From assembly GCA_001051155.2 (NCBI GenBank), contig JYIP02000003.1:5332001-5396000 (forward strand): a DNA stretch of 64,000 nt, in the 5' to 3' direction. Positions within the stretch are counted from its first letter, which is position 1. Each line of letters starts with the position of its first letter. The notes below the pieces were generated by a model that had not been told where the DNA came from, searched no databases, and worked only from the letters and a program-made list of their open reading frames with translations. Made by a program: the position numbers and the translations under genes. Below, piece after piece: positions 3,183 through 46,060 of this stretch. This stretch comes from Chrysoporthe austroafricana (Eukaryota > Ascomycota > Sordariomycetes > Diaporthales > Cryphonectriaceae).

Positions 3183-3722
3183 ATAAATAATAGAATTTCA
3201 AAATTCAAATCTTCCAATCTTTATTTTGACAAATGCAAATAATGTAATTCCCTAATCTTCCGGATTATTCATTACGCTATTATTATGCATCTTTATTCTT
3301 ATTGCGATTGCTTAAAATTAGAAACTTACGCAATATCCAAATAGGATTCGTCCTGTTATTTCAAGTATATTTAGCATAATTAAGCAAGCTGCGATATTTT
3401 GGAATTGACTAATGCCGCAAAGCTTTTGTTCGTATCTAATTAGTTTCAGAAACTGGAAAACGAGATCGAAAGTTTGGAAAATAAGTTAATACGGCTATGG
3501 AAATAGAAGCGGATATAGCGGGAGCGAATGGCTAAGGCATTCCGTTATAGTTTGTCCAATTTTAAGGAACTGGAAAAACTAAAGGCTGAAAAAGCGGCAG
3601 AAGAGAGTTGTAAGGCCGAAGCCGAGCATTGCATTACGGAAATTTTGGTTCTTGAAAGTCCTTTTCCTAAAAGTTTCGATCTGGATATTATTTTGTAATA
3701 ATTTAATCCTAATATCGATTAG
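3183..3722 (+). pseudogene. Antisense coiled-coil ORF of Chr-E
   Basis: A 179-codon frame runs convergent to pol, between the chromodomain and the polypurine tract. The start codon is now ATA (3183-3185), aligned with the ATG of the Chr-D copy; a single TpG-to-TpA change explains it. The terminal stop is TAG at 3720-3722. Codons 89-155 are charged and helical (KLENEIESLENKL, then FKELEKLKAEKA), typical of a coiled coil. PKSFDLD lies near codons 162-168. Internal stops are TAA or TAG at Gln or Trp sites. The start lies 90 bp from the LTR edge. The function is unknown; a nucleic-acid or Gag-binding accessory protein is only a guess. Confidence 0.8.
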
Positions 3723-3759
3723 TTTAATATTAACTTAATTATAAGGTTTAAAGCTATTT

Positions 3760-6700
3760 CGGGTTTCTTTAATCTTTTTTCTAGCTAGCGAATTAGTTAT
3801 TTCTTCTAATAATTCCTAAATGCTTGCTATATATTACTTAAATTACTAATTGGTTCTTAGCTATTTTCGTTTAAATAGTATCTTTTTTATTTGATTAAGT
3901 ATTTTTTATATTTGGTTAGGTTTTTATATTTGAGAATTCGTTCGACCTTGTATTTTAGTTTATTGGATTCGATCTGTATTAATTTGTCCGTTTTGGTTAT
4001 TTTAAATATTAATTCGAAAAATGAAATATAGAATATTGAATGAATTCTTATTTTATAAAGTAATGCTAATTCAAAATTAATATCTGAGATTTTTCTTAGA
4101 ATCCTAAATAGGCCGAATTTCTTATAATCTAATAAGTAGAAAGGTTTTATCGTTTTAATATATTCTTTTTGTCGAATAAAGTAAACTTTATCCTTTTCTT
4201 ATAGGATTAGTCTTTCAATCTTTTTGGAATTAATATATCTTATTATTTTTTCTTATATAAATTTCAATTCTTTCTAAAGTTCTTCTTAAATTTTCTTAAT
4301 TCTTTTAATTCGTTTTTCTATTACTTTTGCATTTGCTCTTAATAATTTATTATAATAAGCTATCGGGTTATAGCCGTAAAATGCATAAAATAGTAATTTC
4401 TTTATTATATTTATATTTGCGCTATTATATATAAATTGTATTAATAATAGCAAATCGACTTAATTATCTTATTCGTAATTTATATAATGCTATAAATATT
4501 GCTTAATAATCTAATTAATTCGTTTTGTTTATTTATCCGTTTGCGAATAGAATGCTATAAATATTTTTTATTATATTCCGAATAGCTTTATAAGTAAAGT
4601 TCAGAAATTGAATGTAAATTTCCTATTTCTATCGAAAATAATTTCCTTAAGCATGCCGTAATTAGCTATAACCGTTCTGAAAAATATATATACGAAATCT
4701 TCCGCTATATTGCTTTCCTTATAAAAAAGGAAATAAGCATACTTGCTTAATTTGCAAACTATTATTAGAATATTATTATACTGTATTTTAATTAAAAGTT
4801 CTTATAAGAAAAGTAGCTTAATAATAAAATCTCAATTAATAGATTGCCAAACCGTTTTCAAAATAAGGAATAATTAGAATAGTCCGTAAGGTTTATAATA
4901 TTCGATCTTATTCTTCTTATAGCTATTGCATTCTTATAAGATTATTTCGATCCTTTTTTTTAATTCTAGAAAATTCCAATATTTTTTAATTCTTTTATAT
5001 ATAACTCTGATTCTTTAATGGCTATATACGAGTGCATTATATATGCGTTTAATATACTTATCTTATTTTTCTATTATTATATTTTCTAATTTTTTTTCAT
5101 TATTGGAAATTCTAATAATCGTATTAAATTCTCTAATTTCGTTTACAAAATTGCTATCTTTATTTTATCGGAAAATATTCTGGAATTTTTTAAGTTTTAT
5201 ATTTTAATAATTTAATTATTTGCTAAATATATTCGTTTTGCCATTTTCGGAACTTTTGCAATAAATAATTTTTAAGTCGAATTATAAAAAAAATTCCGCT
5301 TATCTGATTTATTATCTATTCAGGATTTTTATTATTATAAATATTATTAGATTCTTATAATCGGAATATATTATAATTTAGTATTTTATTCCGATTAAGT
5401 AATGCTGCTATTTTTTAAATGCTTTTATAATTGCTATTAATTCCTTATCCAAAATGCTATAATTGAATTCTGGGCTATTTAATTTCTTTAAGAAATTACT
5501 TATAATTTTAAAGCATTTTTAATTATCTCGTTAATTTAATTATTTTCCGAATATATAATCTGATATATCGGTTTTGACTTTAAATGGCTTATTTAAATTT
5601 GCTTTGCAAAATATTAATTCTAATATAATTCATTTCTTAATTTCGTTAAATGCTTTTTATATTTCTTATATCTATTCGAATTTCTAATTTCTTTTTATAA
5701 GATCTATAAAAAAGCATATAATCTTATTATAATTTCGAATAAATTATCGATAAAAATTAATATAGCCGAAAAATATTTTAATTTCTTTTATTTTTTCCGG
5801 TATAAGCTATTCTTTTATTGCTTAAACTTTATTTTTTTATATATTAATCTTGCTTAATTTTATTATATAACCGAAATAATTAATTTTCTATTAATAGAAA
5901 TAATATTTGCTTAATTTGATTAAGAATTTATTATTTTATAAAATCTAGAATACTTATTATATATATTATTTGTATAATTCAAAATTTTTCGAATAAATAA
6001 AGATATTATCGAAATAAACGATAATAATAATATTTAAGTATTTGCAGAAAACATTATTAATCATTTCTTAAAAAAACGCAAATGCGTTAATTAGTCCAAA
6101 AAGTAAGATTATATACTCAAAATATCCGTAACGAGTTCTGAATGCTATTTTCCAAATATTGTTTTCTTTAATCCGGATATAATAATATCTTTCTTTAAGA
6201 TCAAGCGTAATAAATTAGTTTGTTCTAATTAACTGATCTCGCATCTTTCTTATTAAGGGTAAAGGGTAGCGGTTTTTGATCGTAATATCGTTAAGCTGCT
6301 AGTAATCTATATAAAGTCGTAATTTGCCGTTTTTCTTAAGCATAAATAAAATTGAATATCTTATAAGTAAATATAATTTTCGTATATAACCTCTCTTTAA
6401 GTTCTTATTAATGTATTCCTTAAATATTTTAAGTTTTACTTAATCGAGCTTGTAAATAAAGTAATTTTGCGGTTTTATCCTTTCTTTTAATAGAATTTTA
6501 TAATTAAAAGGGCCGTATTCTAGTAAACCGGTATCAAATTTCCTTTATTATAGCTTCTTAAATTTATAATATTCTTTTAATACGTTCTTGAATTCTAATA
6601 ATAATCTTTCTTTATTTTCTGAAATCTGAAAGAATAAAAAGTATTGCTAAATATATTTTATTTCGCTTGCTTCTTATTGCTATTTTCGGGATTTAATCTT

Positions 6701-7890
6701 TAGGGGTTTTGAATGCTTATCGTTTATTAGCTCGAATTTCTGTTTAGAATCTTTCTATGCTTATTATTTTCGAAACGATATTTCTTTATAGTTTTATAAC
6801 TTATATAGCTTTATAACATTTTGCATTAAATTAACTTTCTATTAATTGCTAATTATTTGAATTTCTAATTTGTCTTTAATTTATGCTTATAAGTTCGAAA
6901 TATTCGTAATCCTTTCTTATTTTCTAGCAAGTTTATTTGCTTTAAAAGTAGATCTAAGCTTGTTTAAATGCATATTTTTGATATTATTCTTAATAATTAA
7001 AACTTTTTTTTCTTTATTAATTATAACTTTCTTAGTAAATATAGCTTATTTTTATAAAATCTAGCCAATAATCTAATCGATTCGAGAATTATGCTTTTTA
7101 AGCCAAAATATTCTTAAGATTAATTCGTATTATATTATATTTATAATATCGAAAATAGTTTTTATTATAAGGCTTTAGATTGAAATAAATAAGTAATTAG
7201 TTTCTATATCGATTATATTAAAATTATATATAACCGCTTTTCCTTTTATAATATTAAGTTTATAAGAATTTTTTTTTTGCATTCAGGAAATCTATTCCCT
7301 ATTAACGATTTCTAGCAAAATAAAATTTCTTTATATGCCGCTATCCAAAAGTACGCCATATCGTTACCCGTTAATATATGCGTTTAATATAATATATTTT
7401 TCATTTTCTTTCGTAATCGCGTATAAGGATTTCGTAATCCTAATCGGCTATTATTCCGTTACAAGCAATCTTTTCCTTTTAGAGTATTCTGGGCTTTTCT
7501 CGTTATTTGCTTTATTAATTTTTATGCTTAATTCTGGCTATATTGCCTTGCCTTTTCGGCTTTCTGCAATTAATACTATTCTTTAGCTTTATTTTGTATA
7601 TAGATAAAGCATATTATAATATAGCATTGCTCTTATATCGTTTTTCTTTATATATACTTCTATAGATAATTATTAAGTAATTCAATATAAGTATTATTAT
7701 TTTCAATATGCAAGACTTTTCTATACTTTTTTCGGGATTTTATAATAAGTTAAATCAATTGGTTTTATTCCCTAATCGGAAACCAATTATATTTGACTTT
7801 TTCGTTAAAATATATCTAGCAATTATAGTAAATATAATATATCCAAGCAAGTTTATAATAATAAGGGTATAAATAACTAATCCTTCTATC
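3760..7890 (-). pseudogene. pol: Chr-E pol (protease, RT, RNase H, integrase, chromodomain)
   Basis: Minus-strand order from high to low: protease LLDSGI with D-S-G kept (7337-7345), reverse transcriptase, RNase H, integrase, and a chromodomain near 3800-3960 (KYKVERILKYK, then KKYLIK). The reverse transcriptase YxDD motif reads YFDN (6005-6010), so one of the two metal-binding aspartates survives, unlike the NN in most other copies here. Dozens of TAA and TAG codons interrupt the frame. Domain limits are approximate and rest on alignment by eye to Chr-A. Confidence 0.75.
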
Positions 7891-7899
7891 TTTTTGAGA

Positions 7900-9480
7900 T
7901 TTGCATTCGCTATTTTGAAACGGGATACTTTAGAAGAGTTCCTATAACATAAGCTTATAAATAAAGTATTTAACTTTCGTATGCTTAGATATCTAGTTAT
8001 CTTGCTTTAATCGTTCTTATTTTTCGTATTAAAAAAACGCTATTTCTATTTTTGTATCGGGCTCTTCTTTTTATATAAGGGTTAATAGATTATCCGGCTA
8101 TTTATTTTGTAAGGCTATTTTTTCAAGCGTAATATTAAATATAAATATTTCTTCCTTTTAAATGCCGAATTCTTTTTTTATTATTATATTTTATCGCTAT
8201 TCGAAATAATAATCGAAAGGAAACCTTTTCAAATCTTCCTCTTTAATATCGAAAGGGTTATTTGAATAGTCGGAATTGCTACTATTTATAGCCGTATCGT
8301 AAATAGAGCTTTTTTTCCCTATAGCGAATTGCTTTTATCTTTTAAGCTTGTATAAGAACTATTCTAAACCTTTTTTCGCTAAGAAATGCAATAAGCAATA
8401 GTCTTAATAGCAAGCTATCCAGCTTATATTGCTATAATTAGGGTCCGCTACTTATTCCGGTAAGATATTATTATTTAGCTAATTGGGTTCTTATCGCTAA
8501 GTAACGTTAATCTATTTTTCTGGAACTGGTTTCCAATCTCGCTTTTTCTTTTCTTAATAGCAATTGCGTACGATATAGCCTTTCTTGCCGCAATTATAAT
8601 AAGTAACTCTTTTGCGTTATTCTTGCATAAGGATATCTAGTTTTATAAATTTAGCATATATTATACTTAAATAAGCTATACTATTCCGGGTTTTCTGCTA
8701 GAACTTGCGTTTTCTTAAATTAGATTAATACTTTAAGGCGCTGCTATAATTCTTTTGTTATTACTAATACTGTTTGTAAAGTCGGTTATCGATACGGACT
8801 GCTTTATTAATAAACTTATTGAGTTTTTCGAATCGGTTTTCTTTATAGAATTCGTCTTTAATTTCTTCTTTAAATCCCGCATAATAAGCATCTATAAAAA
8901 GCTTATCCTTATAGTCCAGATAAGCTATAATTTGCTTGAACTTAGCTATATAGTTTGCGGCTAAGCCAGTCTATCGAAATGCTTCCAATTGCCATACCGC
9001 AATGCGTCTTTCGTCTAGGTTTCCGAAAGTCTTTACGAAAGCTAATTCGAAATTGGCATAGCGTTAAAAAATACGCTTAATATCCTCGGAACGGAATTCT
9101 TCGTTATTATCCAAATAATCGCGGAAAGTTAGTTCTTACTATTGAAAGGCTATTCTTTTAAAGCGACTTCTTGCGAAATCGATCTTGTTATAAATAGTTC
9201 TAAACTGGGTTCCGTAATATTTGAAATAAGCCTTAAGCTATATTAGGAAGGCTTAAAGGTTTCCTCGAATGCTTTTATAAAGCCCAGGCTTATTAAGCTT
9301 GAAAGCTTTAGCTTGCTAGAAAGTACTAAAGCGGATAACTTTATTTTTGATTTCTTTAAGTTATTAGTATAAAGCTACGTTCTGCTATTGGAATTGCTTA
9401 TTAATAAGGATTATCGGGATTTCTTCTTAAAAGCTTTAATTATTGGAAGAAAACAGAATTTAGGGCGCTATCGTATTTCC
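7900..9480 (-). pseudogene. gag: Chr-E gag
   Basis: The capsid segment is clear at about 9000-9090 on the minus strand (RYANFELAFVKTFGN, then RIAVWQL). The zinc knuckle at 8570-8611 reads YYNCGKKGYIVRNC: the first Cys and the His have both become Tyr, by TGT-to-TAT and CAT-to-TAT, both RIP contexts. Several stops. Limits are approximate; the tract between the knuckle and protease is included. Confidence 0.7.
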
Positions 9481-9523
9481 TGATATTGCTTAAAGGGTAT
9501 ATACTAAACCGTTTTTGAATAAG

Positions 9524-9532
9524 AATCGTAAA
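9524..9532 (-). promoter_or_regulatory. Chr-E self-priming primer-binding site
   Basis: TTTACGATT on the minus strand, two bases inside the LTR. It matches the reverse complement of the LTR start AGTCGTAAA but for one C-to-T. Confidence 0.65.
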
Positions 9533-9534
9533 AA

Positions 9535-9951
9535 TATTATAAATGCTATAATATCTTTAAAATAAACTGTATAATTAAAAGGTTTATATTAGCAAAGATA
9601 GTATTAAATACTACTTTGAATACCGAAAAACGTATTTTAAATAGATATTCGCAATATTCATAAGCCAATATAGCTATTCCTGAAATATAAGTAGAGTCCT
9701 AATAGTACTTAGATTTACGACTGAAAAGCTATAATAATCTATCCGGTAAATGTCTTATTCTTATATATCCGGCTTTTCAGTATTAAATCTGGCAGCTCTA
9801 AAATAGATCCTTAAATCCTTCCCGCTTTATAACCCTATCCTTAAATTATATAAGCGGGTAAGGAAAGTCTTCTGAATAGGGTTATAGGTAAAGTGCTTGG
9901 CTATTCCCTATTCTTCCCTTGCATGCTTTATCCCTTTGCTAAGTTATAATA
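9535..9951 (-). repeat. Chr-E 5' LTR (417 bp)
   Basis: Edges TATTATAAATG and GTTATAATA give the family's inverted termini. The element-strand core promoter reads CTGAAAAGCCGGATATATAAG, followed by AGTCGTAAA. It has one 35-bp U3 unit. Its length equals that of the solo LTR at 50742-51158. Confidence 0.9.
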
Positions 9952-9957
9952 CTTGTC

Positions 9958-10417
9958 TATTATAAACGCTATAGCAATCTTAGGATAAACTATAAGGTTA
10001 AAGGGTTTATATTAGCAAAAGCAATGCTAAATATAGCTTTAAATACCGGAAACTTATTTAGCAAATATTCGCAATATTTACAAGCTTATAAGGCTATCGC
10101 TTAAATATATAATAGGGTTTAAGTAATACTTAAATTTACGACTGAAAAGCTATAAGGATTTAATTAATAAATATCCTTTTCTTATATACCTAGCTTTTCA
10201 TTCGTTAGATTTACCGGGTTTATTAAATCTAAAGCAAATCTCTACATCTTAAATCTGCCGGATTTATAACAAATCCTTAAATCCCGCTTCCTTTATAGCC
10301 CTAACTCTGGGTTATATAAGCGATTGCGGAAATTCTTATAAGAAAGGCTAGCAGCAAAGCGTTCTATTAAACTCCTTTTCCTTACTATACGGTTTAGTCC
10401 TTTATTAAATTATAATA
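9958..10417 (-). repeat. Chr-D 3' LTR (460 bp)
   Basis: Starts TATTATAAACGC and ends TTATAATA on the plus strand; the next bases (10418-10430) are the polypurine tract read backwards. R contains AGTCGTAAA on the element strand. Confidence 0.9.
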
Positions 10418-10507
10418 TTATCCCTTTTCCTATCGATTATTATTCCCAATAATCTTTCGTAAGTAATCTAATTTGCAAAGGCATATTGTTATGCCTTTCT
10501 AATTAAG

Positions 10508-11047
10508 ATGCTCAATAGAATTTCGAAATCGAGATTTTCTAATCCTCGTTTTAATAAGAATAAGTAACGGGAATCTTTAATTTTTCGAATTATTCATTAT
10601 GCTATTATTATGCAACTCTATTTCTATTATAACCGTTTTAGTTTGGAATCGTATGCAATTTCCAAATAAAATTCGTCCTATTATCTTAAATGCGTTTAAT
10701 ATAACTGGTCGAGCTGCGATATCCTAAAACCGATTAATATTACGGAACTTTCTTTTATATTTAACTAGTTTCAAAAACTGAAAAATGAAATTAAAGGCTT
10801 AAAAGACAAACTAATAAAGTTGCAGAAATAGAAACGAATATAGCGGGAACGGATAGCCCGGGCCTTCCGTTATAGCTTATTCAATCTTAAAGACTTGGAA
10901 TGGCTAGAGAAAGAAAAAGCCGAAAAAGAGCGCTATAAAGCCGAGGCTAAGTATTGCATTTCGGAAGTTTTAATTCCTAAAAGCCTTTTTCCCAAGAGTT
11001 TTGATCTGGATACTGCTTTGCAATAATTTGGTTTCGATATCGATTAA
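10508..11047 (+). pseudogene. Antisense coiled-coil ORF of Chr-D
   Basis: This copy keeps the ATG (10508-10510), which fixes the start for the family, and the terminal TAA after FGFDID (11045-11047), giving 179 codons with no net indel against Chr-E and Chr-C. It begins MLNRISKSRF. The middle reads RFSLESYAISK, then a charged helix (KLKNEIKGLKDKLIKL) and FNLKDLEWLEKEKAEKE. It ends PKSFDLDTALQ. Internal TAA and TAG fall at Gln or Trp sites. It lies 90 bp from the LTR edge and converges on pol. Function unknown. Confidence 0.82.
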
Positions 11048-11059
11048 TCCGCTATTGAC

Positions 11060-13590: not shown

Positions 13591-14049
13591 TATTATAACC
13601 CGTTAAGAGATTAGATTGTATAATAAGGAAAGGAAATTTAATAGGATGCTTTATTACCGGTTTTCCCTGTAAAATCCCTATAACCGCTTACGTAATTCAG
13701 GATTAAGGTTAGGAAAGAAGTAAGATTTGGGAATTTATTACAAATCCGATAGATCTAGAATTTAAAAATCTGTTTCAAACTTAATAAACTCAGTAAGTTT
13801 AACGAATAAAAAGCCGGATATATAAGAACTAAACATTTACTAAATAGATCGCTATAGCTCTTTAATCGTAAATTTAAATGCTATTTAAACCTTAATATAC
13901 TTTCAAGTAATAGCCTTATAAGCTTATAAATATTGCGAACATTTGTTAAATACATTTCCGGTATATAAAGCTATATTTAATACCGCTTTTATTAATATAA
14001 ACCCTTTAACCTTATAGTTTATCCTAGTATTACTGTAGCATTTATAATA
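13591..14049 (+). repeat. Chr-C 5' LTR (459 bp)
   Basis: Termini TATTATAACC and GTTTATAATA. TATATAAG at 13819-13826; AATCGTAAA at 13864-13872 (from AGTCGTAAA), 45 bases downstream, is the presumed RNA start. Confidence 0.9.
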
Positions 14050-14051
14050 TT

Positions 14052-19958: not shown

Positions 19959-20098
19959 TATTATGAACCCACAAATAAAACCCGGGAAGGGAAAAGGAAA
20001 ACAGACAGACGACCCACCCACAGGGAGTTTCACACAGGAAACACGAATCCCAGGATCATGCATGGGTTAGGGTTAGATAAGATAAGGATTACTAGATT

Positions 20099-20200
20099 AC
20101 CTGGTAAGCCAATAAGCTACGTTTACCCACTTACCTGGTAAGCCAGTAAGCTACGCTTACCCATTCACCTAATGAGCCAGTGAGCTACGCTTATAGGGCA
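20099..20200. repeat. 34-bp tandem array in Chr-A U3, three units
   Basis: Units at 20099, 20133 and 20167. Each opens ACCTGGTAAGCC or a variant and holds arms GGTAAGC and GCTTACC. The same array is at 27009-27110 in the 3' LTR. Confidence 0.93.
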
Positions 20201-20213
20201 AAGTATATAGACA

Positions 20214-20260
20214 GTAAGGGACGCCCTTGAAAGGGTAGTTCTAATACCTTCAGTCGTCAA
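20214..20260 (+). promoter_or_regulatory. Chr-A core promoter and presumed RNA start
   Basis: TATATA at 20214-20219; AGTCGTCAA at 20252-20260 lies 38 bases downstream and is complementary to the primer site at 20430-20438. Confidence 0.65.
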
Positions 20261-20429
20261 TCTAAATATTAATTGGATTTTACTATTAATAGCTATATTG
20301 GCTTATAAATATTGCAATACTCAGTAAACTTATCCTGAATCTCAAGGCTATACTTGGTATTGCTTTTGTTAGCATAAACTCTTTGACCCTATAGTATATC
20401 TTAGGATTTGCTATAGCGTTTATAATATT

Positions 20430-24400: not shown

Positions 24401-26150
24401 CAGAGAGACGACTAAAGACGCTTTAGGGTCGTAAGCAACTTTTCAAAGAAATTAAACGGCTTAGAACTCAATTACGGCATTCCTGATAAGGAACTGATAG
24501 CAATTGTCAAGGCATTTAAAGAATAATAGCGATATCTGATCGGAACCAAATACTAGATTATAGTATATTCGGATTACAAGAATCTCATAATATTTATAAC
24601 TACCAAGGTTTTGAATAAACGATAAATTAGATAGGCAGAATTCCTCTCGCAATTCGATCTGAAAATCATATATTGCAAAGGATTAGAGAATGGCAGAGCA
24701 AATGCATTCAGCAGATAGGCAAATTACCAAAATACGGAACCTAAAGAACTGCAAAACATTTTCAGGTAAGACAAAGACGGCAGCCTTATAAACGAGGCAA
24801 GAGAACTTAATACGATTATCAGAATCGAGAATCAAGGAAGATATCCTGAGGATATAATTCCCGAAAAGCAAGACGAATATATCAGGACTATATATAGTAT
24901 ACTAGCATATAGTTACTAAGGAATCAGAGCCATTTACGAAAGAATCAAGAAATACTGGAACTTACTAAAATTCAGATAAAGAATCGAAAAAATCTTACGA
25001 GAATACGACAGCTATAGGAGGAATAAGATCGAATATTATAAGCCTTATAGGTTGCTCTAACTATTTCCGGTTCCGAAAGCAATTTGGCAATCTATTAGCT
25101 AGGACTTTATTACCAAGCTACCCCTTTTACGAGAACCCTTAACTAGAATGCAGTATAATAGCATTCTAGTAGTAGTTTGCAGACTAAGCAAGTATGCTTA
25201 TTTCCTGCTATATAAGGAAAGTAGCATAGCGGAAGAATTCGCATATACATTCTTCAAAACGGTTATAGCCAATTATAGCATGCCCAAGGAAATCATTTCC
25301 GATAGAGATAGAAAGTTCGTATCAAATTTCTGGACCTTATTTACGAAACTATTCGGAATATAACAAAAAATGTCTATAGTATTCTATTTACAAATAGACG
25401 GACAAACGGAAAGAACTAACCAGGTTATTAAGCAATACTTACGATACTATGTGAATTACGAATAGGATAACTGGGTCGACTTCTTACCCCTAGTACAATT
25501 TGCATATAATAGCGCAAATACAAGTATAATAAAGAAGTCGCCATTTTACGTACTCTATAGCTATAACCCGATAGCTTATTACGACGAGATATCAAGAGCA
25601 AATGCAAAAGCTGCAGAAAAACGAATCAGAAGGATCAAAAAGGTTCAGGAAGAATTCCAGAAGGAACTGAAGTTCGTGCAAGAAAGAATAACGAAATACG
25701 CTAACTCTAAAAGGATTAAGGGACCAATCCTATAGGAAAGGGACAAAATCTATTTTGTTCGATAAAAGGAATACATTAAAACGATAAGACCCTCTCATTT
25801 ACTGGATTATAAGAAATTGGGACTATTTAAAATCCTAAGGAAGATCTCAGATATTAATTTCGAATTCGCATTACCTTATGGAATGAGAATCCATCCGGTA
25901 TTCTACATTTCGCTTTTCGAACCAGTATTAAAATCGACCAAAACAGACAAAAGCATTCAAATAGGGAATAATAAGCCAGAATACAAGGTCGAACGAATCT
26001 TTAGATATTGCAAACCAGATTATAATCCCGAATATTTTGTCAAATGGAAAGGCTATCCGGCAAGTGAAAATTCGTAGGAACTTAGGATTAATTTACAGAA
26101 CGTATTTCGAGCGTTAGCGGATTACTTGGATAAATAATAACAGAAAGAAA
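21480..26150 (+). pseudogene. pol: Chr-A pol (protease, RT, RNase H, integrase, chromodomain)
   Basis: Protease ALLDSSA at 22592-22612. Reverse transcriptase about 23560-24100, with IKNRYPL, MPFGLTNALASFQEM and the catalytic motif YLNN (23918-23929), both aspartates now Asn. RNase H about 24340-24720, ending GRANAFSR. Integrase about 24890-25800: DFITKLP and ISDRDRKF keep Asp, but the third catalytic residue is Lys (AAG 25430-25432) where Glu is expected before QYLRYYVNYE. Chromodomain at about 25975-26140: YKVERIFRYCK, then EYFVKWKGYPASENS. The longest open pieces are 23828-24043, 25148-25363 and 25817-26077. Confidence 0.9.
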
Positions 26151-26253: not shown

Positions 26254-26775
26254 CTACCCAGACCCGGGACCAAACTGTTATAAGGCGGCATCCAGATCAA
26301 AACTCTTAGGAAGAAGACTTTCGGGAACCAAGGGTTCTATTGCTCGATATTCTGCTATAGCCCTGCGCTTTTCTTTTTCGGCTTTTTCAGATTCCAGTCT
26401 TTCCAACTCTTCCAAACTAGACAAGCCGTAACGGACAGCCCGCATTATCTTCTCGTACTACATACGCTTTTGGCGACAAAGCCGGAGAACTTTCTTTTCG
26501 GCCGCCTCTAGTTCATCTTCTAGCTCTTAGTGGCGGCGAGCCATTTTGCGCAGCTTGTCAGGAGAAACGCCTAGCATATCGTAACGAGAACGGTTAAGTC
26601 GTACGCATTCTGAATAACGAGAGGAGTCTCGTTCAGAAACCTAATAGACGGGAATTCCGCGATTCTTACAGAAGGAATAGGAAGGTATCTGTATGGCGTA
26701 TTGAAGGATCGCTTCCAGAAGGGAGTTTCGCCATTGAGTTTTAAGTAAACGATTCTTTTGTACCCTACTAGATAT
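26254..26775 (-). pseudogene. Antisense coiled-coil ORF of Chr-A
   Basis: Best preserved member, 173 codons from an ATA (26773-26775) in the place of the ATG to TAG at 26254-26256. It reads from ILQYAIQIPSYSFCKNRG through SERDSSRYSECVRLNRSRYD to a long charged helix (ELEDELEAAEKKVLRL, SSLEELERLESEKAEKEK) and LLPKSFDLDAAL. Only four internal stops, all TAA or TAG at likely Gln or Trp sites. It starts 93 bp from the 3' LTR and converges on pol. Short coiled-coil hypothetical proteins of this look are, from memory, often annotated in filamentous ascomycetes. Function unknown. Confidence 0.85.
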
Positions 26776-26854
26776 TCTAATTAGGAAAGTACGATAATAA
26801 AGGAAGGATTTGCGAAAAACTCTTACAGAAATCGATAAAGATATTAATACCGAT

Positions 26855-26868
26855 AAGGGGGGGGATAG
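26855..26868 (+). other. Chr-A polypurine tract
   Basis: AAGGGGGGGGATAG directly before the 3' LTR; primes plus-strand DNA synthesis. The run of eight G is the longest in the window. Confidence 0.85.
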
Positions 26869-27337
26869 TATTATAAACCCACAAATAAAACCCGGGAAGG
26901 GAAAAGGAAAATAGACAGATAACCTACTTATAGGAAGTTTCATACAGGAAATACGAATCCCAGGATTATGCATAGGTTAGGGTTAGATAAAATAAGGATT
27001 ACTAGATTACCTGGTAAGCCAATAAGCTACGCTTACCCATTTACCTGGTAAGCCAGTAAGCTATGCTTACCCATTTACCTAGTAAGCCAGTAAGCTACGC
27101 TTATGGGGCAAAGTATATAGATAGTAAGGGACGCTTTTGAAAGGGTAGTTCTAATACTTTCAGTTGTTAATCTAAGTATTAATTGGACCCTACCATTGAT
27201 AGCCATATTGGCTTATGAATATTGCGATATTCAGTGAACTCGTTCTGAATCTCAAGGTTGTACTTAGTACCGCTCTTATTAGCATAAACCTTTTGACCCT
27301 ATAGTATATCTTAGGATTTGCTGCAGCGTTCATAATA
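26869..27337 (+). repeat. Chr-A 3' LTR (469 bp)
   Basis: Termini TATTATAAAC and GTTCATAATA; 34-bp array at 27009-27110; TTAGGGTTAG at 26977-26986. Flanked by AAAGC (27338-27342). Confidence 0.95.
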
Positions 27338-27342
27338 AAAGC

Positions 27343-36000: not shown

Positions 36001-36770
36001 CGTTTATTTCCTGGAATTTATTATTTTCCTTTGCTTTTATTTATTCTTCTTACTATAATTGAAAAATTCCTAGATTTATTAGTAAATTTAAAATTTAAAT
36101 TTTCGGTCGAATATCGTAATAAATAAATATACTTAATTTCGCTATTAATATTAATATATTCAAATATATAATACTTTCGATTTTCGATAAATTATTGCTA
36201 AACTAACTTTTTTAATAGATTTTCCGAGTTATTAAATCGAAAAGTATTCTCGCTTTCGTTCATTTCTATAAGCATTTATTATTATTCCTTTTCTATTATC
36301 GTTTCGGCAAGCTATTAAAATTTGCAATATTTGGAAAAATCTTCTCAGAACGTATTATTCTCTCTTATCCATTAAGATAGATTCTTATCGAAATTCGACT
36401 TTCTTTTTTCTTAAGTCTAGCGCTTAAGCAGTAAAGGCTATCTTTGCTTAACTACTTATGCCTTTGTTTTCTACAAAAATATATTAGCTTCCCTGGGATT
36501 CTGCTTTGCCTTTTCGTATTGATTGGCCAAAAGTTTCCAATTAACAAAAATATATGCAATTTCGAAAAAGATCTTAATATCCGATATAACTTAATCCTTT
36601 TTCTTAAAATCGTTTAAAGCTTATATGAATTTGTATATTTGGGCGGGATATTTGATTTCGATATAATCGATAAACTATAATAATAAAACGTTATTGCTAG
36701 TAATTGCTATAGTAAATTAGCAATGAATTATCAATAAATAATTATAATATTTCTTATAGGAATGCTATTT
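33000..36770 (-). pseudogene. Chr-G1 gag and protease region
   Basis: Placed by position only, between the leader and reverse transcriptase on the minus strand. Stops are dense and I did not find a zinc knuckle or a D-S/T-G protease site. The plus-strand open stretch 34581-34835 and the minus one at 32763-32954 are short; the latter is in or next to the RT N-terminal part. Confidence 0.45.
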
Positions 36771-36774
36771 TTAC

Positions 36775-36905
36775 AGAAACCGATATCTTATAAGACCGAT
36801 ACTCTTATAAAAGCCGATACTTTACAGAGCCAATACTTTTATAAAGGCCGTTATCTTATAAGACCGATACTCTTATAGGAACTGTTATTCTATAAAGCCG
36901 ATAAT
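36775..36905. repeat. Degenerate 18-20 bp tandem repeats in Chr-G1 leader
   Basis: About seven degenerate units of the type CCGATACTCTTATAAAAG between gag and the 5' LTR. The same array is at 62990-63123 in G2. It is followed by a GC-richer stretch with the hairpin CGCAGCAAAAGCG. Confidence 0.75.
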
Positions 36906-36951
36906 CGAAACCCGATTACGCAGCAAAAGCGTGCAAAGCGTAGCTATTAAT

Positions 36952-37159
36952 TAATAGTATATATACTGAAATATATTATAAAGCATAATTTTTCCAAGAA
37001 AGTAAATTACGCTAAAAGCCTATCAGGGCATTATATAAGCCTCCCGGTAAGGGTATAGCATTTACTTGGTAAATTCATTGCGTATTTATTAAGGGATTTA
37101 CTATAGATTTACTAAGCGAATTTATTACGAATTCACTTTGTTTATAAGTTTTGCTATTA
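36952..37159 (-). repeat. Chr-G1 5' LTR (208 bp)
   Basis: Begins TAATAGTATA and ends TGCTATTA on the plus strand; followed by TAGGA (37160-37164). Confidence 0.9.
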
Positions 37160-37164
37160 TAGGA

Positions 37165-38430
37165 TAAATATATTAGATATATATATAGTATACCCGTATA
37201 TAGCTATTAAAGAATTAGAGCTATATATAAAAGAATTAAGAAATATTGGAATTTTCTAAGATTGAAAAAAAGGATTGAAATAATTTTATAAGAATATAAA
37301 AGCTGCAAGAAAAACAAAATTGAATATTACAAACCCTATAAACTATTCTAACTATTTTTTATTCCGGAAGCAATTTAGCAATTTATTAGCTAGAATTTCA
37401 TTACTAAGCTACCCCTTTTACGAAAACCTTTAATTAAAATGCAATACGATAGCATTTTAATAATAGTTTGCAAACTGAATAAATATGCTTATTTCTTTTT
37501 ATATAAGGAAAGTAATATAATAGAAAATCTCGCATATACGTTTCTTAAAATAATTATAGCTAATTATAGCATATTTAAAGAAATTATTTCTAATAAAAAT
37601 AGAAAGTTTGTATTAAACTTTTGGTTTTTATTTATAAAACTATTCGGAATATAGCAAAAAATATTTATAGCATTCTGCTTGCAAACGGATAGATAAACAG
37701 AACGAACAAATTAAATTACTAAATAATATTTACGATATTATATAATTACGAATAAAATAACTGGGTTAACTTGCTATTATTAATATAATTCGTATATAAT
37801 AGCGTAAATATAAATATAATAAAGAAATTACTATTTTACGCGCTTTACGGCTATAACCCGATAGTTTACTATAACGAATTACTAAAAGCAAATGCAGAAA
37901 TAGCAAAAAAACGAATCCGGAAAATCAAGAAAATCTAAAAAGAACTTTAAGAAAAACTGAAATTTATACAAAAAAGAATAACGAGATACGCTAATTCCAA
38001 AAGGATTAAAGGACCAATCTTATAAAAAAGGGATAAAGTTTATTTTATTCGACAAAAAAAGCATATCAGAATAATAAAACCTTTTTATTCGTTAAATTAT
38101 AAAAAACTTAGCTTATTTAGAATTCTAAAGAGAATTTCGGATATTAATTTCGAATTTGCATTGCTCTATAGAATAAGAATTTACCCGGTATTCTATATCT
38201 TATTTTTCGAATTAATATTGAAAGCAACCAAAACGGACGAATCGATATAGATCGAAACTAATAAACCGGAATACGAAATCGAACGAATTTTCCGTTACCA
38301 AAAATTACCCAAATATAAGGAATACTTAATCAAATGGAAAAGGTATTATTCAAGCGAAAACAGCTAGGAATTAGTTAGCAATCTGAATAATATATAGCAA
38401 GCAATTAATAAATACTGGAAAAAGTAATTA
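37165..38430 (+). pseudogene. pol: Chr-B pol, second part (integrase, chromodomain)
   Basis: Continues the frame broken at 19119. The integrase core is open at 37439-37654 (ANYSIFKEIISNKNRKF; the second catalytic Asp is Asn here). The chromodomain at about 38270-38410 reads YEIERIFRYQK, then EYLIKWKRYYSSENS. Stops at Gln and Trp sites. Confidence 0.8.
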
Positions 38431-38501
38431 ACTAATTATCTAGAAGAATATTCAAGAAAGCCCAGTACGGCTTCGTACTCTATAGATAAATTAATAGTAG
38501 A

Positions 38502-39032
38502 TTAATCGATATCAAAACCGAATTGCTGCAAAGTAATATTCAAATCGAAACTTTTAGGAAAAAGACTTTCAGAAACTAAAGGTTCCGTAACGCGATATTC
38601 GGCTTCGGCTTTATAACGCTCTTCTTTAGCCTTTTCCGCCTCTAACTTTTCCAATTTCTTAATATTATCGATACTGCAATAAATAGCCCGTATTATCTTC
38701 TCGTATTATATACATTTCTAATAATACAAGCGAAAAACTTTTTCTTTTATAGCTTCCAATTTATTTTCCAACTTCTGATATTAGCGAGCTATCTTGCAAA
38801 GCTCGTCCGGAAAAACCCTTAGAATATTATATTAAGAACGGTTAAGTCGTATATATTCCGAATAATAAGAAAAATTACTTTCAGAAATTTAGCAATTAGA
38901 AATGCTACGACCCTCGCAAAACGAATAAGAAAATATTTGCATAGCGCGCTGCAAGATTGCCTCTAGAAAAAAATTATAATACTGGGTTTTAATCGAACGG
39001 GAAAAACGAATTTTTTGTATTTTGCTTAATAT
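38502..39032 (-). pseudogene. Antisense coiled-coil ORF of Chr-B
   Basis: 176 codons from ATA (39030-39032, aligned to the family ATG) to TAA at 38502-38504. The N-terminal half reads FFLEAILQRAMQIFSYSFCE, close to Chr-A. It continues with KLENKLEAIKEKVFRLYYQK and KKLEKLEAEKAKEERYK, and ends PKSFDLNITLQQFGFDID. Very few stops, again TAG or TAA. It lies 89 bp from the 3' LTR. Confidence 0.83.
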
Positions 39033-39121
39033 CTCGATTAGGAAAAAAGGATTAACAAACCGGTATTGATAAAGACTTTACAGAAAATTGTTAAGGACAA
39101 TAATTATTAAGGGGAAAATAA

Positions 39122-39572
39122 TATTATAAACTAATATAAAGAAACCGGAAAGCATAAAAAACCTGGGAATAATTAATAGAAAAACCCAATAAGCAGCTTT
39201 GCTAATAAAAGACTTATGCTGCTTATATAATTACGGGTTAGGGTTAAAATAAGATAAGGATTACTGGATTACTAAATAATTTAGAGAACTAAGTTTACCG
39301 AATTATTTAATAAGCCAGTAATCCAGAACTGAAAAGCTGAATATATAAGAATAGGATATTTACCAGATAAATTATTATAGCTTTTTAATCGTAAATTTAA
39401 GTACTATTTGAACCCTATTTTACTTTCAAGTAATAGCCTTATAAGCTTATAAATATTGCGAACGTTTATTAAATAAGTTTCCGGTATATAAGGCTATATT
39501 TAATATCGCTTTTGCTAATATAAACCCTTTAACCTTACAGTTTATTTTAAGATTACTGCAGCGTTTATAATA
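39122..39572 (+). repeat. Chr-B 3' LTR (451 bp)
   Basis: Begins TATTATAAAC after the purine tract and ends GTTTATAATA before TCCAG. Contains GGGTTAGGGTTA at 39235-39246. Confidence 0.92.
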
Positions 39573-39577
39573 TCCAG

Positions 39578-39804
39578 CAACAAAATATAGCTTTATATTA
39601 ATAGCTTAAGGAAATTAAGAACGAAATTTTCTGCTTTAATGCCTTTTAATAAGCTAAAGCTTTCAAGCTTAATAAGCTTAAGTTTTATAAAAGCATTCGA
39701 AAGGACTTTCAAGCCTTCTTAATTTAATTCAAAACTTATTTCAAATATTATAGCGCTTAATTCAGAACTATTTATAATAAAATCGATTTCGCGAAAAGCC
39801 GTTT
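39578..39804 (+). pseudogene. gag: Chr-C gag, fragment 2
   Basis: Resumes gag after Chr-B (KAFKLNKLKFYKSIRKDFQ region) and is broken again by a solo LTR at 39805. Joined with 14061-14195 and 40237 onward it restores one frame. Confidence 0.75.
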
Positions 39805-40231
39805 TATTATAACCCAATATAAAACCGGAGTTGCAAAAGGAAAAGCTAGCAATCAGATGCCCTGCCCTTATTCCTACTTAAAGAAACCCTATAACTACTA
39901 ACCCAGAAATAAGGTTAGATAAAATAAGGATTACTAGATTATTAAGTAATCCAGTAAGTTAGGATTACCGGATTATTTAATAAGCCAGAGATTAATACTG
40001 AAAAGCCAGGTATATAAGAATAGAACATTTAATAAATAGATTATTATAGCTTTTCAGTCGTAAATCTAAGTATTAATCGGCCCTTACTATTGATAGCTAT
40101 ATTGGCTTATAAATATTGCGAATATTGTTAAACAAGTTTCCGGTATTTAAAGCAATACTTAGTACTGTCTTTGCTAGCATAAACCTTTTAATATTACAGT
40201 TTATCCTAAGATTACCGCAGCGTTCATAATA
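39805..40231 (+). mobile_element. Solo LTR of a separate family (427 bp) in Chr-C gag
   Basis: Termini TATTATAACC and GTTCATAATA with exact CGTTT duplication (39800-39804, 40232-40236). U3 shares the module AGGTTAGATAAAATAAGG with Chr-A. A core promoter CTGAAAAGCCAGGTATATAAG-like tract and AGTCGTAAA follow. No internal sequence, so it is the product of LTR-LTR recombination. Confidence 0.93.
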
Positions 40232-40236
40232 CGTTT

Positions 40237-40930
40237 TGAAAGGATAGCTTTTCAATAATAAGAACTAACTTTCCGCAACTATTTGGACAATAACGAAAAT
40301 TTCCGTTCTAAAAATACTAAGCGCATTTTCCAATATTACGCTAATTTCGAATTGGCCTTTATTAAAACTTTTAAAGACCCGGATAAGAGACGTATTGCAA
40401 TATAGTAATTAGAAGCATTTCGATAAACTAGCTTAGCCGCGGATTATATAGCTAAATTCAAGCAAATTATCGCTTATTTCGATTACGAAAACGAACCTCT
40501 TATAGATGCCTATTATGCAAAATTCAAAAAAGAAATTAAAGACGAACTTTATAAGGAAAACCGACCCGAAAAACTTAACGAGTTTATTAATAAAGCAGTC
40601 CGTATTAATAATTAACTTTACGAATAGCGCTAGCAATAATAGAAAAACTATAATAGCATTTCAAAATATTAACTTAATTCAAGGAAATGCAAGTTCTAGC
40701 AGAAAAATCGAAATAATACGGCTTATTCAAATACGATATATACTAGCCTTATAGAATTGAATACTCTTATATAAGAATAATGCAAAAGGGTTATTTGCTA
40801 TAATTGCGGTAAGAAAGGCTATATTGTATGCAATTGCTATTAGGAAAAGAAGAAATGAAATTAGAAGCTAGTTCTGGAAAAACAGGTTAATATTGCTTAA
40901 TAATAAAAACTCAATTAGCTAAGCAATAAT
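40237..40930 (+). pseudogene. gag: Chr-C gag, fragment 3 with zinc knuckle
   Basis: Holds YANFELAFIKTF, EIKDELYKENRPEKL and the knuckle CYNCGKKGYIVCNC at 40796-40837 (His changed to Tyr). The open frames at 40433-40636 (minus) and 40506-40754 (plus) are shadows. Confidence 0.78.
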
Positions 40931-43900
40931 ATCTTACCGGAATAAATAACGGACTTTAGCGATAGTAATATAAGCTGAATAGTTTGCTATTAAGACCATT
41001 ACTTATTGCACTTCTTAGCAAAAGAAAGCTTAGGATAGTTCTTATACAAACTTAAAAGACAAAAGCAATTCATTATAGGAAAAAAAGGCTTTATTTACGA
41101 TGCGGCTATAAATAACAGTAATTCTAACTATTCAAATAACTCTTTAAATGCTAAAGAAGAAAACTTAAAAAAGTTTCCTTTAAACTATTACTTTAATCGA
41201 TAATAGGATACGATAATAAAAGACGAAATAAGTATTTAACGGAAGGGCATACTTATACCCGGTGCTATATTTGAAGAAATAGCGCTATAAAACAAATAGC
41301 CGGATAACTTATTAACCTTTACGCTCGAAAAAAAACCCAATACGGAAATAGAAAAAGTAGTTATTTAGCATATAAAACAGGAATAATTAAAGCAAAATAG
41401 CTGGATATCCAAATATACGAAAATTAAGCACTTTATTTACGGGCTTATATTATAAGAATTTCTTTAAAGCATCCCGTTTCAGAATAACGAATATAAACTT
41501 TAAGAAAATAAAAGGATTAGCTATTTATACCCTTATTACTATAAACTTGCTTGAATATACTATATTTATTATAATTGCTAAATATATTTTAATGAGAAAG
41601 TTAAATACAATTGGTTTTCAATTAAGAAATAGGATTAATTAATCCAACCTATTATGGAATTCCGAAAAAGATATAGAAAAGTCTTATATATTAAGAATAA
41701 TAATGCTTATATTAAACTATTCGATAATTGTCCGTAAAAATGCATTTAAAGAAAAACGATATAAAAGCAATGCTATATTATAATATGCTCTATCCATATG
41801 CAAGACAAAACTAAAAAATAATATCGATTGCAGAAAATCGAAAAGGCAAGGCAATATAGCCAAAGCTAAATACAAAAACTAGCAAGGCAAATAGCGAAAG
41901 AAGCTTAGAATACTTTAAAAGGGAAAGATCGCTTATAACGAAATAATAGCCGATTAGAATTACGAGGTCTTTATATGCAATTACGAAAGAGAATAAGAAA
42001 TATATTCGATTGCATATAACTTTAATATAATCGATATAGAAACTAATTACTTACTTATTTCGATTTAAAGCTTTATAATAAAAACTATTTTCGATATTAT
42101 AAATATAGTATAATACGAGTTAATCTTAGGAATATTTTAGCTTAAGAAGTATAATTTTCGAATCGATTGGACTATTAATTAGATTTTATAAGAATAAGCT
42201 ATATTTATTAAAAAAGTTGCAATTAACGAAAAAGGGAAAGTTTTAATTACTAAAGATAATATTAGAAATATACGATTAAATAAGCTTAAATATACTTTTA
42301 AAGCAAGCGGACTTGCTAAAGAATAGAAAAGGGTTACGAATATTTCGAACTTATAAGTACAAATTAAAAACAAATTAGAAATTCAAGCAATTAGCAATCG
42401 ATAGAAAATCAATTTAGCGTAAAGCGTTATAAAGCTATATAAATTATAGAATTATAAGGAAATACCGTTTCAAAAATAATAGGCATAAGGAGATTATAGG
42501 CAGAAGTTTAAGCTGACGAATAATAAATACTCGAAACCCTTAAAAGTTAAGCTTTGAAAGCAGCAATAAAAAGCAAGCGAAGCAAAATACGCTTAATAAT
42601 ACCTTTTATTCTTCCAGATTTCAGAAAATAAGAAAGGATTATTACTTGAATTCAAAAATATATTAAAAGAATATTACGAATTCAAGAAATTATAATAAAG
42701 GAAATTTAATATTAGCTTATTAAAGCATTGCCTTTTTAATTATAAAATCCTATTAAAAAAAAAGATAAAATTGCAAAATTACTTTATTTATAAGTTCGAT
42801 TAAGCAAAACTCGAAATATTTAAAGAATATATTAACGAAAATCTAAAAAGAAGCTATATACGGAAATTATAATTATTCGCAAAATACTTAATCCTATTTA
42901 TACTTAAATAGAATAATAAATTGCAATTTTATATAAATTATTAATAACTTAATAATATTATAATTAAGAATCGTTATCTTTTACTTTTAATAGGAAAAAT
43001 GCGAAATCGATTAATTAAAACAAATTGGTTTATTATATTAAACTTCAAAGAAAGATATTATTATATTCGGATTAAAGAAAATAATATCTGGAAAATAGCA
43101 TTTAAAACTCGTTACGAACATTTTGAATATATAATTTTACTTTTTAAATTAACTAATGCGCTTATATCCTTTCAAGAAATAATTAACGATATTTTCCGCA
43201 AATATTTGAATACTATTATTATTATTTATTTTAATAATATCCTTATTTATTCAAGAAATTTTGAATTATATAAATAATATATATAGCAAATGCTTTAGAT
43301 TTTATAAAATAATAAGTTTTTAATCGAATTAAGCAAATATTATTTCTATTAATAAAAAATTAATTATTTCGATTATATAATAAAATTAAGCAAAATTAAT
43401 ATATAAAAAAATAAAATCCAAGTAATAAAAAAATAGCTTATATTAAAAAAGATTAAAGAAATTAAAGCATTTTTCAGCTATATTAATTTTTATTAATAAT
43501 TCATTCGAAATTATAGCAAAATTGTATGCTTTCTTACGGATTTTACGAAAAAAAATCGGAAATTCGAATAGATATAAGAAATATAAAAAGCATTCGATAA
43601 AATTAAAAAACGAATTATATTAAAACTTATACTTTGCAAAACAAACTCAAATAAGCTATTTGAAATCGAAACCGATATATCGAATTATGCATTCGGAAAA
43701 TAATTTGATTAATGAAATAATTAAAGACGCTTTAGGATTATAAGCAATTTTTCAAAGAAATTGAATGGCTTAGAATTCAATTATAGCATTCCGGATAAAG
43801 AATTAATGGCAATTATAAAAGCATTTGAAAAGTAGCAGTATTATTTAATCGGAATTAAATACTAAATTATAATGCATTCCGATTATAAGAACTTAATAAT

Positions 43901-45440
43901 ATTTATAATAATAAAAGTCTTGAATAAATAATAAATTAAATAAGCAGAATTTTTCTTATAATTCGATTTAAAGATTATTTATTGCAAAAGATCCGAAAAT
44001 AGCAAAACAAATGCATTTAGCAAACGATTAAATTACTAAAATATAGAATTTAAAAAGCTTTAAAATATCTTCCGATAAGATAAAAACGGCAATTTTGTAA
44101 ATAAAGCTAGAAAACTTAATACAATTATCAGAATTTCCAATAGCGAAAAGAAATTAGAAAATATAATCCTTAAAGAATAAGATAAATATATCAGAAATAT
44201 ATATAATATACTCGCATATAGCTATTAAAGAATTAAAGTTATATATAAAAGAATTAAGAAATATTGGAATTTTCTAGAATTAAGAAAAAAAATTGAAATA
44301 ATCTTATAAGAATGCAATAACTATAAGAAAAATAAAATTAAATATTATAAGCCTTATAGACTATTCCAACCGTTTTTTATTCCAGAAGCAGTTTGGCAAT
44401 CTATTAGCTAAGATTTTATTATTAAGCTACTTTTCTTACGAAAACCCTTAATTAAAATGCAATACGATAGCATTCTAATAATAATTTGCAAATTAAGCAA
44501 ATACGCTTATTTCTTACCGTATAAGGAAAGCAGCATAGCGGAAAACTTTGCATATATATTCTTCAAGATAGTTATAATTAACTATAGCATATTTAAAGAA
44601 GTTATTTCCGATAAAGACAGAAAGTTTATATTAAATTTCTGGATTTTACTTATAAAACTATTCGGAATATAATAAAAGATATTTATAGCATTTTACTTAT
44701 AAACGGATAAACAAATAGAATAAATAAATTAAATTGTAAAATAATATTTACGGTATTATATAAATTACGAATAAGATAATTGGGTTAATTTGCTATTATT
44801 AATACAATTTGTATATAATAATATAAATATAAATACGATAAAGAAATTATTGTTTTACGCGCTTTATAGCTATAATTCAATAGCTTATTATAACGAATTA
44901 TTAGGAATAAATGCAAAAGCAGCAGAAAAACGAATCCGGAAAATTAAGAAAATCCAAAAGGAATTTTAGGAAAAACTGAAATTTATATAAGAAAGAATAA
45001 TAAAATATGCTAATTCCAAAAGGATTGAAAGACTAATCTTATAGGAAAGGAATAAAGTCTATTTTGTTCGACAAAAAGAATATATTAGAACGACAAAACC
45101 CTTTTATTTACTAAATTATAAGAAACTTAGCCCATTCAGAATTCTAAGAAAAATCTCAGATATCAATTTCGAACTAGCATTACCTTATAAAATAAGAATT
45201 TACCCGGTATTCTATATTTTATTTTTCGAATTAGTATCCAAAATAGCCAAGATAGACGAATTAGTACAAATTAAAGCTAACGAATTAGAATACGAAATTG
45301 AACGAATCTTTAAATACCGAAGCTTAATCAAGCATAAGGAATACCTAATCAAATAGAAAAAATACTACTCAAACGAAAATAGCTAAAAGCCAGTTAGCAA
45401 CTTAAATAATATACGATAAATACTTAAAAAATATTAAGAA
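40930..45440 (+). pseudogene. pol: Chr-C pol with protease site deleted
   Basis: Same order as Chr-A. At about 42005 some 154 bp, equivalent to Chr-B 16790-16943, are missing and with them the protease active site. Reverse transcriptase is open at 42999-43277; the catalytic motif is YFNN (43233-43238). Integrase core 44457-44672; chromodomain about 45290-45430 (YEIERIFKYRS, then EYLIK). Confidence 0.8.
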
Positions 45441-45520
45441 AAGCAACCAATTAATTAATTAGGAAAATAATTAAAAAGATTCGGGATAGCTTTATATCTT
45501 GCAATCGGGTTAATAGCAAA

Positions 45521-46060
45521 CTAGTTAATGCTAGAATCAAATTACTGCAAAGCAATATCCAGATCGAAATTCTCGGGAAGAAGACTTTTAAAGACTAAAG
45601 CTTCCAAAGCGTAATGCTCAGCCTTAGCCTTGCAACGCTTTTTTTCGGCTTTTTCCTTTTTCAAACGCTCTAAGTCTTTAAGGTTGGATAAGCTACGGCG
45701 GAAGGCCCGGCCTATCTATTCCCGCTATATTCGTTTTTATTTCCGCAGCTTTATTAGTTTATTTTCCAAACCTTTAATTTCGTTTTCCAGTTTCTGAAAT
45801 TAATTAAACGCGAAAGAAAGCTCTGTAACGTTAGTCGGTTCCAGAATATTATAATTCGACTAGTTATATTGAACGCATTTAAAATAACGAAACGAATCTT
45901 ATTTGGAAACCGTATACAATTCCAGACCGAAACGGTTATAATAAAAACAAAGTCGCATAATAACGGCGTAATAAATAATTCGAAAGATTAAAGAATCCCG
46001 CTATTTATTTTTATTAAAACGAGAATTAGAAGATTTCGGTTTTGAAACTCTATTAAGCAT
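45521..46060 (-). pseudogene. Antisense coiled-coil ORF of Chr-C
   Basis: Exactly 540 bp from an intact ATG (46058-46060) to TAG (45521-45523), the same 179 codons as Chr-D and Chr-E. Reads RFGLELYTVSK, KLENEIKGLENKLIKLRK, LSNLKDLERLKKEKAEK and ENFDLDIALQ. It lies 90 bp from the 3' LTR. Stops at Gln or Trp sites only. Confidence 0.82.

What the first reader, a model, noticed from the sequence alone, without database searches (positions are those of the whole stretch)
3183..46060. Conserved antisense coiled-coil gene between pol and 3' LTR in five chromovirus families
Chr-A, B, C, D and E each carry, convergent to pol, an ORF of 173, 176, 179, 179 and 179 codons (26254-26775, 38502-39032, 45521-46060, 10508-11047, 3183-3722). 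The start (ATG in two, ATA in the other three) lies 93, 89, 90, 90 and 90 bp from the LTR edge. The proteins align end to end: a basic N-terminal part, a coiled coil at about residues 89-155, and PKSFDLD or a close variant near the end. Three families show no net indel. This suggests an accessory protein expressed by antisense transcription out of the 3' LTR. Antisense ORFs are known in some plant gypsy elements; I know of no description for these.
Basis: partly seen in the sequence, partly recalled or inferred. Interest (0 to 1): 0.88.

Follow-up and report, generated by a model that had tools for sequence, protein, structure and literature searches.

The report
Antisense zinc-cluster gene in fungal retrotransposons
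Most chromovirus-type jumping genes examined in this fungal genome carry, written backwards just before their last repeat, a conserved gene for a small protein that looks like a fungal DNA-binding zinc-cluster regulator; antisense genes of this kind are known in a few elements, but this one's make-up and reach look new.

Summary
Five antisense frames lie at the stated places, 86-93 bp inside the 3' LTR, and align end to end. It is a real gene. Among natural copies, transversions (which RIP does not make) fall 66:33:154 on codon positions 1:2:3 (tv dN/dS 0.21); the LTR-side flank is flat (273:273:254), and the other five frames score 0.48-3.19. Intact homologues occur in many Sordariomycetes. 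Of the 150 listed pol C-terminal hits in this genome, 138 have such a gene antisense just downstream, in two diverged types; one type appears to have an intron on the antisense strand.

The protein has a basic N-terminus, six cysteines (Cys or Tyr in the decayed copies) and a long coiled coil. A coil-deleted model's only structural neighbours are Zn2Cys6 domains (HAP1, GAL4, LEU3, LAC9, Pho7), all with low Z. Best reading: a dimeric zinc-cluster DNA-binding protein made from an antisense transcript, probably regulating its own element, as HBZ does. Expression and DNA binding are inferred. Antisense genes at this place are known (brtn of Boty; plant Retand, Grande): a new variant of a known kind.

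The parts
25400..26134 (+). C-terminal part of Chr-A pol: Tf2-1-like SH3 domain and chromodomain, ending before the antisense gene (convergent, no overlap)
   Evidence: Chromo 6.2e-9
26869..27337 (+). 3' LTR of Chr-A, 93 bp from the antisense start; partner 5' LTR 19959-20427, 88.5% identical
26776..26868 (-). 93-bp leader between 3' LTR and the antisense start of Chr-A; an antisense transcript of the whole gene must start here, in the LTR or beyond it
   Evidence: role inferred

Best explanation
The segments are decayed (RIP-like) copies of a conserved gene that at least 138 of the 150 best pol matches in this genome carry on the strand opposite to gag-pol, between pol and the 3' LTR. It codes for a protein of about 200 residues: basic N-terminus, six-cysteine zinc-cluster-like domain, long coiled coil, variable tail. 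This is the layout of fungal Zn2Cys6 regulators such as HAP1 and GAL4, which dimerise through the coil and bind DNA through the cluster. Most likely the 3' LTR (or the leader beside it) drives an antisense mRNA, the dimer enters the nucleus, and it binds the element's own LTR or nearby chromatin to tune sense transcription or copy number, much as HBZ does for HTLV-1. Shown: gene, frame, selection, position, spread, cysteine pattern. Predicted: fold, intron. Inferred: transcription, zinc and DNA binding, regulatory role.
Confidence: 0.5

Rival explanations
1. It is a real antisense-coded, nucleic-acid-binding coiled-coil protein, but it works in the transposition cycle itself (particle assembly, cDNA transport, choice of AT-rich or heterochromatic target sites with the chromodomain integrase) rather than as a transcription regulator.
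For: A codon-position pattern like that of pol (66:33:154 against 53:36:137) and presence in 138 of 150 listed pol hits suit a part of the replication machinery; coiled coil and cysteine domain would also fit a scaffold or targeting factor.
Against: Opposite-strand expression separates it from gag-pol in amount and time, which is odd for a structural part; the nearest folds are DNA-binding regulators (low Z).
Confidence: 0.25
2. The protein acts on the host: it counters silencing, RIP or heterochromatin, or competes with host zinc-cluster factors, to protect the element.
For: The antisense gene is split into strongly diverged types (type 2 is barely found by the type-1 profile, best E 4.9e-5) while the pols of the ten type-2 copies fetched are 77-81% identical to Chr-A pol over the C-terminal piece, which might reflect an arms race or exchange of modules.
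Against: No direct evidence; the Cys core is under strong purifying, not diversifying, selection (9:8:50).
Confidence: 0.15
3. The antisense transcript, not the protein, matters (dsRNA feeding RNA interference), and the frame is a relic.
For: Convergent transcription would make dsRNA; antisense and small RNAs from fungal transposons are the subject of papers seen in the listing (PMC10648671, PMC8365987).
Against: tv dN/dS of 0.21-0.27 in this frame only and intact proteins across genera need a selected protein.
Confidence: 0.04
4. Artefact: the frame is only the mirror of conserved pol-strand sequence, or a chance frame kept similar by shared descent.
For: The sense frame that shares the wobble position shows tv dN/dS 0.48, and two of five stop-free copies have an open sense frame over the match.
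Against: The pol match ends before the gene; the antisense frame scores 0.21; the flank is flat; homologous proteins in this frame exist in other genera.
Confidence: 0.01

Closest known systems
brtn, antisense gene of Boty-like retrotransposons (Botrytis cinerea, Sclerotinia; Zhao et al. 2011, Virology 417:248, known here only through passages of citing papers PMC7264820, PMC8365987, PMC4227169, PMC5987419)
   Same: Antisense to gag-pol between pol and 3' LTR of a fungal element whose gag-pol carries a chromodomain.
   Different: No Botrytis protein is named among the 97 rows or the 120 listed of 240. A zinc cluster, an intron or genome-wide presence is not mentioned in the passages I saw; the original paper was not seen.
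Antisense ORFs of plant Ty3/gypsy elements (Retand TRP28, Grande, RIRE2)
   Same: Same place and orientation; the author of PMC11963269 predicts DNA binding and suggests a regulatory role by analogy with retroviruses (passages; PMC7264820 passages).
   Different: Retand is a non-chromovirus lineage (abstract start) and its domain is TRP28 (PF04195); no cysteine cluster is mentioned in the passages seen, and TRP28 is not among the Pfam rows shown for these proteins (with 25 of 53 families shown, 65).
HBZ of HTLV-1 (antisense bZIP protein; PMC3736048, abstract and section list)
   Same: Antisense-coded regulator from the 3' LTR with a zipper; down-regulates Tax-driven 5' LTR activity.
   Different: bZIP rather than zinc cluster; retrovirus of people; no homology claimed. 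Used only as a functional model.
Fungal Zn2Cys6 regulators HAP1 / GAL4
   Same: Six cysteines followed by a coiled coil; the only structural neighbours found.
   Different: Below the Pfam cut-off; one loop a residue longer in type 1; carried on a retrotransposon.

Membership tests
Antisense additional ORF between pol and 3' LTR (brtn kind) | Lies between pol and 3' LTR | tested here: met
Antisense additional ORF between pol and 3' LTR (brtn kind) | Opposite orientation to gag-pol | tested here: met
Antisense additional ORF between pol and 3' LTR (brtn kind) | Conserved coding capacity in most copies | tested here: met
   selection; presence in 138 of 150 listed pol hits, (most copies are decayed)
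BRTN protein family (Boty-like elements) | Sequence homology to B. cinerea BRTN | not testable with these tools
   BRTN sequence not held; source paper not held; no Botrytis name in the rows listed
Zn2Cys6 zinc cluster (PF00172) | Pfam gathering score | tested here: not met
   5 of 35 members at E<=1, best 0.18; P0001 11.8 bits against cut-off 21
Zn2Cys6 zinc cluster (PF00172) | Cys spacing CX2CX6CX5-12CX2CX6-8C (recalled) | tested here: inconclusive
   type 1 is CX2CX7CX9CX2CX7C, one residue too long in one loop; type 2 fits only if its third position, Tyr in all 10 copies read, was Cys
Zn2Cys6 zinc cluster (PF00172) | Binuclear cluster fold | tested here: inconclusive
Zn2Cys6 zinc cluster (PF00172) | Binds zinc and DNA | not testable with these tools
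   needs protein
Chromovirus (host element) | Chromodomain at the C-terminus of pol | tested here: met
   Chr-A: PF00385, 36.1 bits against cut-off 25.1
HBZ-like retroviral antisense protein | bZIP domain | tested here: not met
   no bZIP family among the Pfam rows shown (with 25 of 53 families shown, 65); cysteine cluster instead
HBZ-like retroviral antisense protein | Transcribed from the 3' LTR | not testable with these tools
   no RNA data

The most novel reading that the evidence does not exclude
A major lineage of fungal chromoviruses carries its own zinc-cluster DNA-binding protein of the GAL4/HAP1 kind, made from an antisense and in one type spliced mRNA. An intron on the antisense strand is not removed from the sense genomic RNA and so survives retrotransposition. 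This would be a fungal counterpart of HBZ, with occasional escape into the host genome as a stand-alone gene.
Probability: 0.45. Interest if true: 0.85.

Novelty: new variant of a known kind. Interest (0 to 1): 0.66.

Why it matters
Many fungal 'hypothetical proteins' (240 database hits) get a likely identity: an antisense gene of chromoviruses, if their context elsewhere matches that seen here. If the protein is a zinc-cluster DNA binder, fungal retrotransposons carry their own transcription factor. Self-regulation by antisense proteins, known from HTLV and suggested for plant Retand elements, would then have a third setting that can be tested in culturable fungi. The intron on the antisense strand gives a clean RNA test: only a real antisense mRNA can be spliced there.

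Tried and rejected
Pol-strand explanation: rejected by the six-frame control and the flank control. Noncoding antisense RNA as sole explanation: rejected by the codon-position pattern. The idea that the true start is the internal Met near residue 31-36, suggested by P0001 alone, was dropped when relatives complete at this end were seen to start upstream with M-x-x-R-V-x-K or similar (13 of its 35 rows lack that part, most of them starting at the internal Met). Viral contigs: one scan, 38 stretches matched a pattern, none a relative. PDB sequence search: three matches, best E 0.008 to HEP200, taken as chance. Foldseek on both models: nothing at E<=10. Scan for CGG/CCG repeats against mononucleotide shuffles: the six LTRs of three elements (L040, L041, Chr-A) show 2, 1, 0, 0, 0, 0 pairs against means of 0.7-1.9; of ten type-2 flanks seven exceed the mean and three have none; not followed. 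RIP indices over the antisense segments are mixed: A, B and C look RIPped, D is borderline and E is not by these two ratios, so 'RIP-like' rests on AT content, the excess of transitions (1887 against 382 transversions), the Cys/Tyr pattern and the stops, not on the indices. Locus tags of Pyricularia and Cytospora homologues: 0 papers. Searches for printed descriptions; apart from brtn and the plant elements I saw no description of this family in the listings, which cover only the open library. Codon test on type 2: too few transversions between copies to say anything.
Full report
What was checked. The window is C16:5332001-5396000 of a 48.15-Mb assembly in 22 contigs, AT-rich (GC 0.19-0.39 in 2-kb steps) and packed with repeated, decayed LTR elements. 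All five segments exist at the stated coordinates and align end to end. The distances to the LTR repeat are as stated within a few bases. None of the five is an open frame: 5, 6, 9, 8 and 10 stops including the last. At the stop positions of 34 copies, 186 in all and partly beyond the true ends, the commonest residue in other copies is Gln (83) or Trp (43), with Arg 22, Gly 12, Ile 12 and others 14. Gln and Trp are the codons RIP turns into TAG/TAA; the remainder were not explained one by one. Two RIP indices over the segments are mixed (A, B and C fit, D borderline, E not), so I write RIP-like.

Is it a gene? In 17 disjoint nearest pairs among 34 copies, transversions fall 107:61:214 on codon positions 1, 2 and 3 (chi-square p 1e-21), tv dN/dS 0.27, and 9:8:50 in the cysteine part. 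Repeated from nucleotide alignments with 16 pairs (the pair with the solitary gene L013 left out): 66:33:154, dN/dS 0.21. The five other frames give 0.48 to 3.19, the lowest being a sense frame. The 600 bp on the LTR side give 273:273:254, and pol in its own frame 53:36:137. The window copies alone (A-B and D-E) give 17:7:39, p 3e-6; C and D differ by just 3 transversions. Of five copies without a stop in the antisense match, three have stops in all three sense frames; L013 and L018 have an open sense frame, so openness alone decides nothing.

Homologues. A profile of the five finds one intact protein, P0001 (E 1.9e-22). P0001 finds 97 rows, itself included, and a wider alignment 240 at E<=0.001, of which 120 are listed. 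Rows that name an organism give Colletotrichum, Pyricularia, Fusarium, Cordyceps, Beauveria, Metarhizium, Hirsutella, Gaeumannomyces, Chaetomium, Microdochium, Monosporascus and Cytospora, all Sordariomycetes by recall, and call them hypothetical or uncharacterized; the rest are metagenome or assembly proteins, some with automatic names such as seryl-tRNA synthetase that I take as chance. No family covers them in Pfam: matches are scattered and mostly coiled-coil, among them CENP-Q in P0005 below its cut-off here and DUF465 just above its cut-off in P0134. Genomic context of these outside proteins could not be read.

Context in this genome. A search with P0001 scored 150 of 399 candidates, all 150 listed. 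Of 35 rows examined with flanks, 34 have the chromovirus pol C-terminus on the opposite strand (one row repeats Chr-A, so 33 of 34 distinct). The pol C-terminal piece of Chr-A contains a chromodomain. That piece has 151 matches among 554 candidates, 150 scored and 150 listed. Of the 150 listed, 64 have a type-1 gene antisense within 2.5 kb downstream, 62 of them at 126-346 bp; one has it on the same strand, none upstream. The ten best-ranked of those without were fetched. All ten show a diverged antisense relative (type 2) when translated; the type-1 profile sees it weakly, at E<=0.01 in 8 of 10 loci and 4.9e-5 at best, and all 21 rows at E<=1 are on the antisense strand. A genome search with its first exon gives 81 hits of 83 scored, and 76 of the 88 remaining pol hits have one antisense 359-710 bp downstream. 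So 138 of 150 carry one or the other; 12 have neither. Four still more diverged hits on C18 are also antisense to pol.

A likely intron. In type 2 the N-terminal cysteine part and the coiled coil are in different frames, separated by a pyrimidine-rich stretch. It reads as an intron on the antisense strand: donor GTAAGC/T, GTAGGC or GTGGGC in 7 of 10 copies (AT in 3, as RIP of TG would give), branch-like CTAAT or CTGAT, acceptor ending ATAG, 50-59 nt in 8 copies and 80 in one; the tenth was misplaced by my pattern. The exon frames then meet in phase in those nine. The model was drawn after looking at the alignment and is a prediction from sequence, not seen in RNA.

Mechanism. A zinc cluster followed by a coiled coil is the layout of dimeric fungal regulators (established for HAP1 and GAL4). 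Coded opposite to gag-pol and starting about 90 bp inside the 3' LTR, the gene can be expressed apart from gag-pol. I therefore favour self-regulation through DNA binding, by analogy with HBZ (abstract of PMC3736048) and with the suggestion made for Retand (PMC11963269, passages). Against it: no CGG-repeat site stands out in the LTRs, and nothing is known about expression.

Known or new. [quoted passage not shown] PMC11963269). A Monilinia transcript resembles BRTN (PMC5987419, passage). Whether BRTN is a relative could not be tested; I think it likely. New here, as far as the listed searches show: the zinc-cluster plus coiled-coil make-up, the purifying selection shown without RIP bias, presence in 138 of 150 listed pol hits of one genome, two to three diverged types, and the predicted intron. 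Hence 'new variant of a known kind'.

Noticed in passing
L039:7498-8151 (minus strand); G000:C12:3390462-3391115: A solitary, intact, GC-rich homologue of the antisense gene with no match to the Chr-A pol piece in the 9.5 kb fetched and only local short repeats instead of an LTR pair, in a stretch with other long ORFs; a homologue in Cytospora mali (P0134) is 59% identical over 53% of it. Possibly a host gene derived from, or ancestral to, the element gene.
   Followed up: partly
L030 and L034 against L010: Copies that look mosaic by eye: N-terminal part like one subtype, C-terminal part like another, as if modules are exchanged during reverse transcription.
   Followed up: no
type-2 first exons, 81 places in G000: The first exon of type 2 is free of stops in 71 of 81 hits although the same elements' pol holds several; it may be poor in stop-prone codons or the copies may be younger.
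   Followed up: no
L053-L056 (C18): Third, more diverged subtype of the antisense gene, also beside pol; L055 seems to hold two different antisense relatives in a row.
   Followed up: partly
window 53074-53841 (-): The only ORF of 150 codons or more listed in the window (255 aa, TTG start, bacterial code), not examined.
   Followed up: no
P0034, P0066 (Pyricularia): Database proteins with an insertion near the C-terminus relative to P0024, as if an intron were retained; other records named 'variant' hint at alternative gene models.
   Followed up: no
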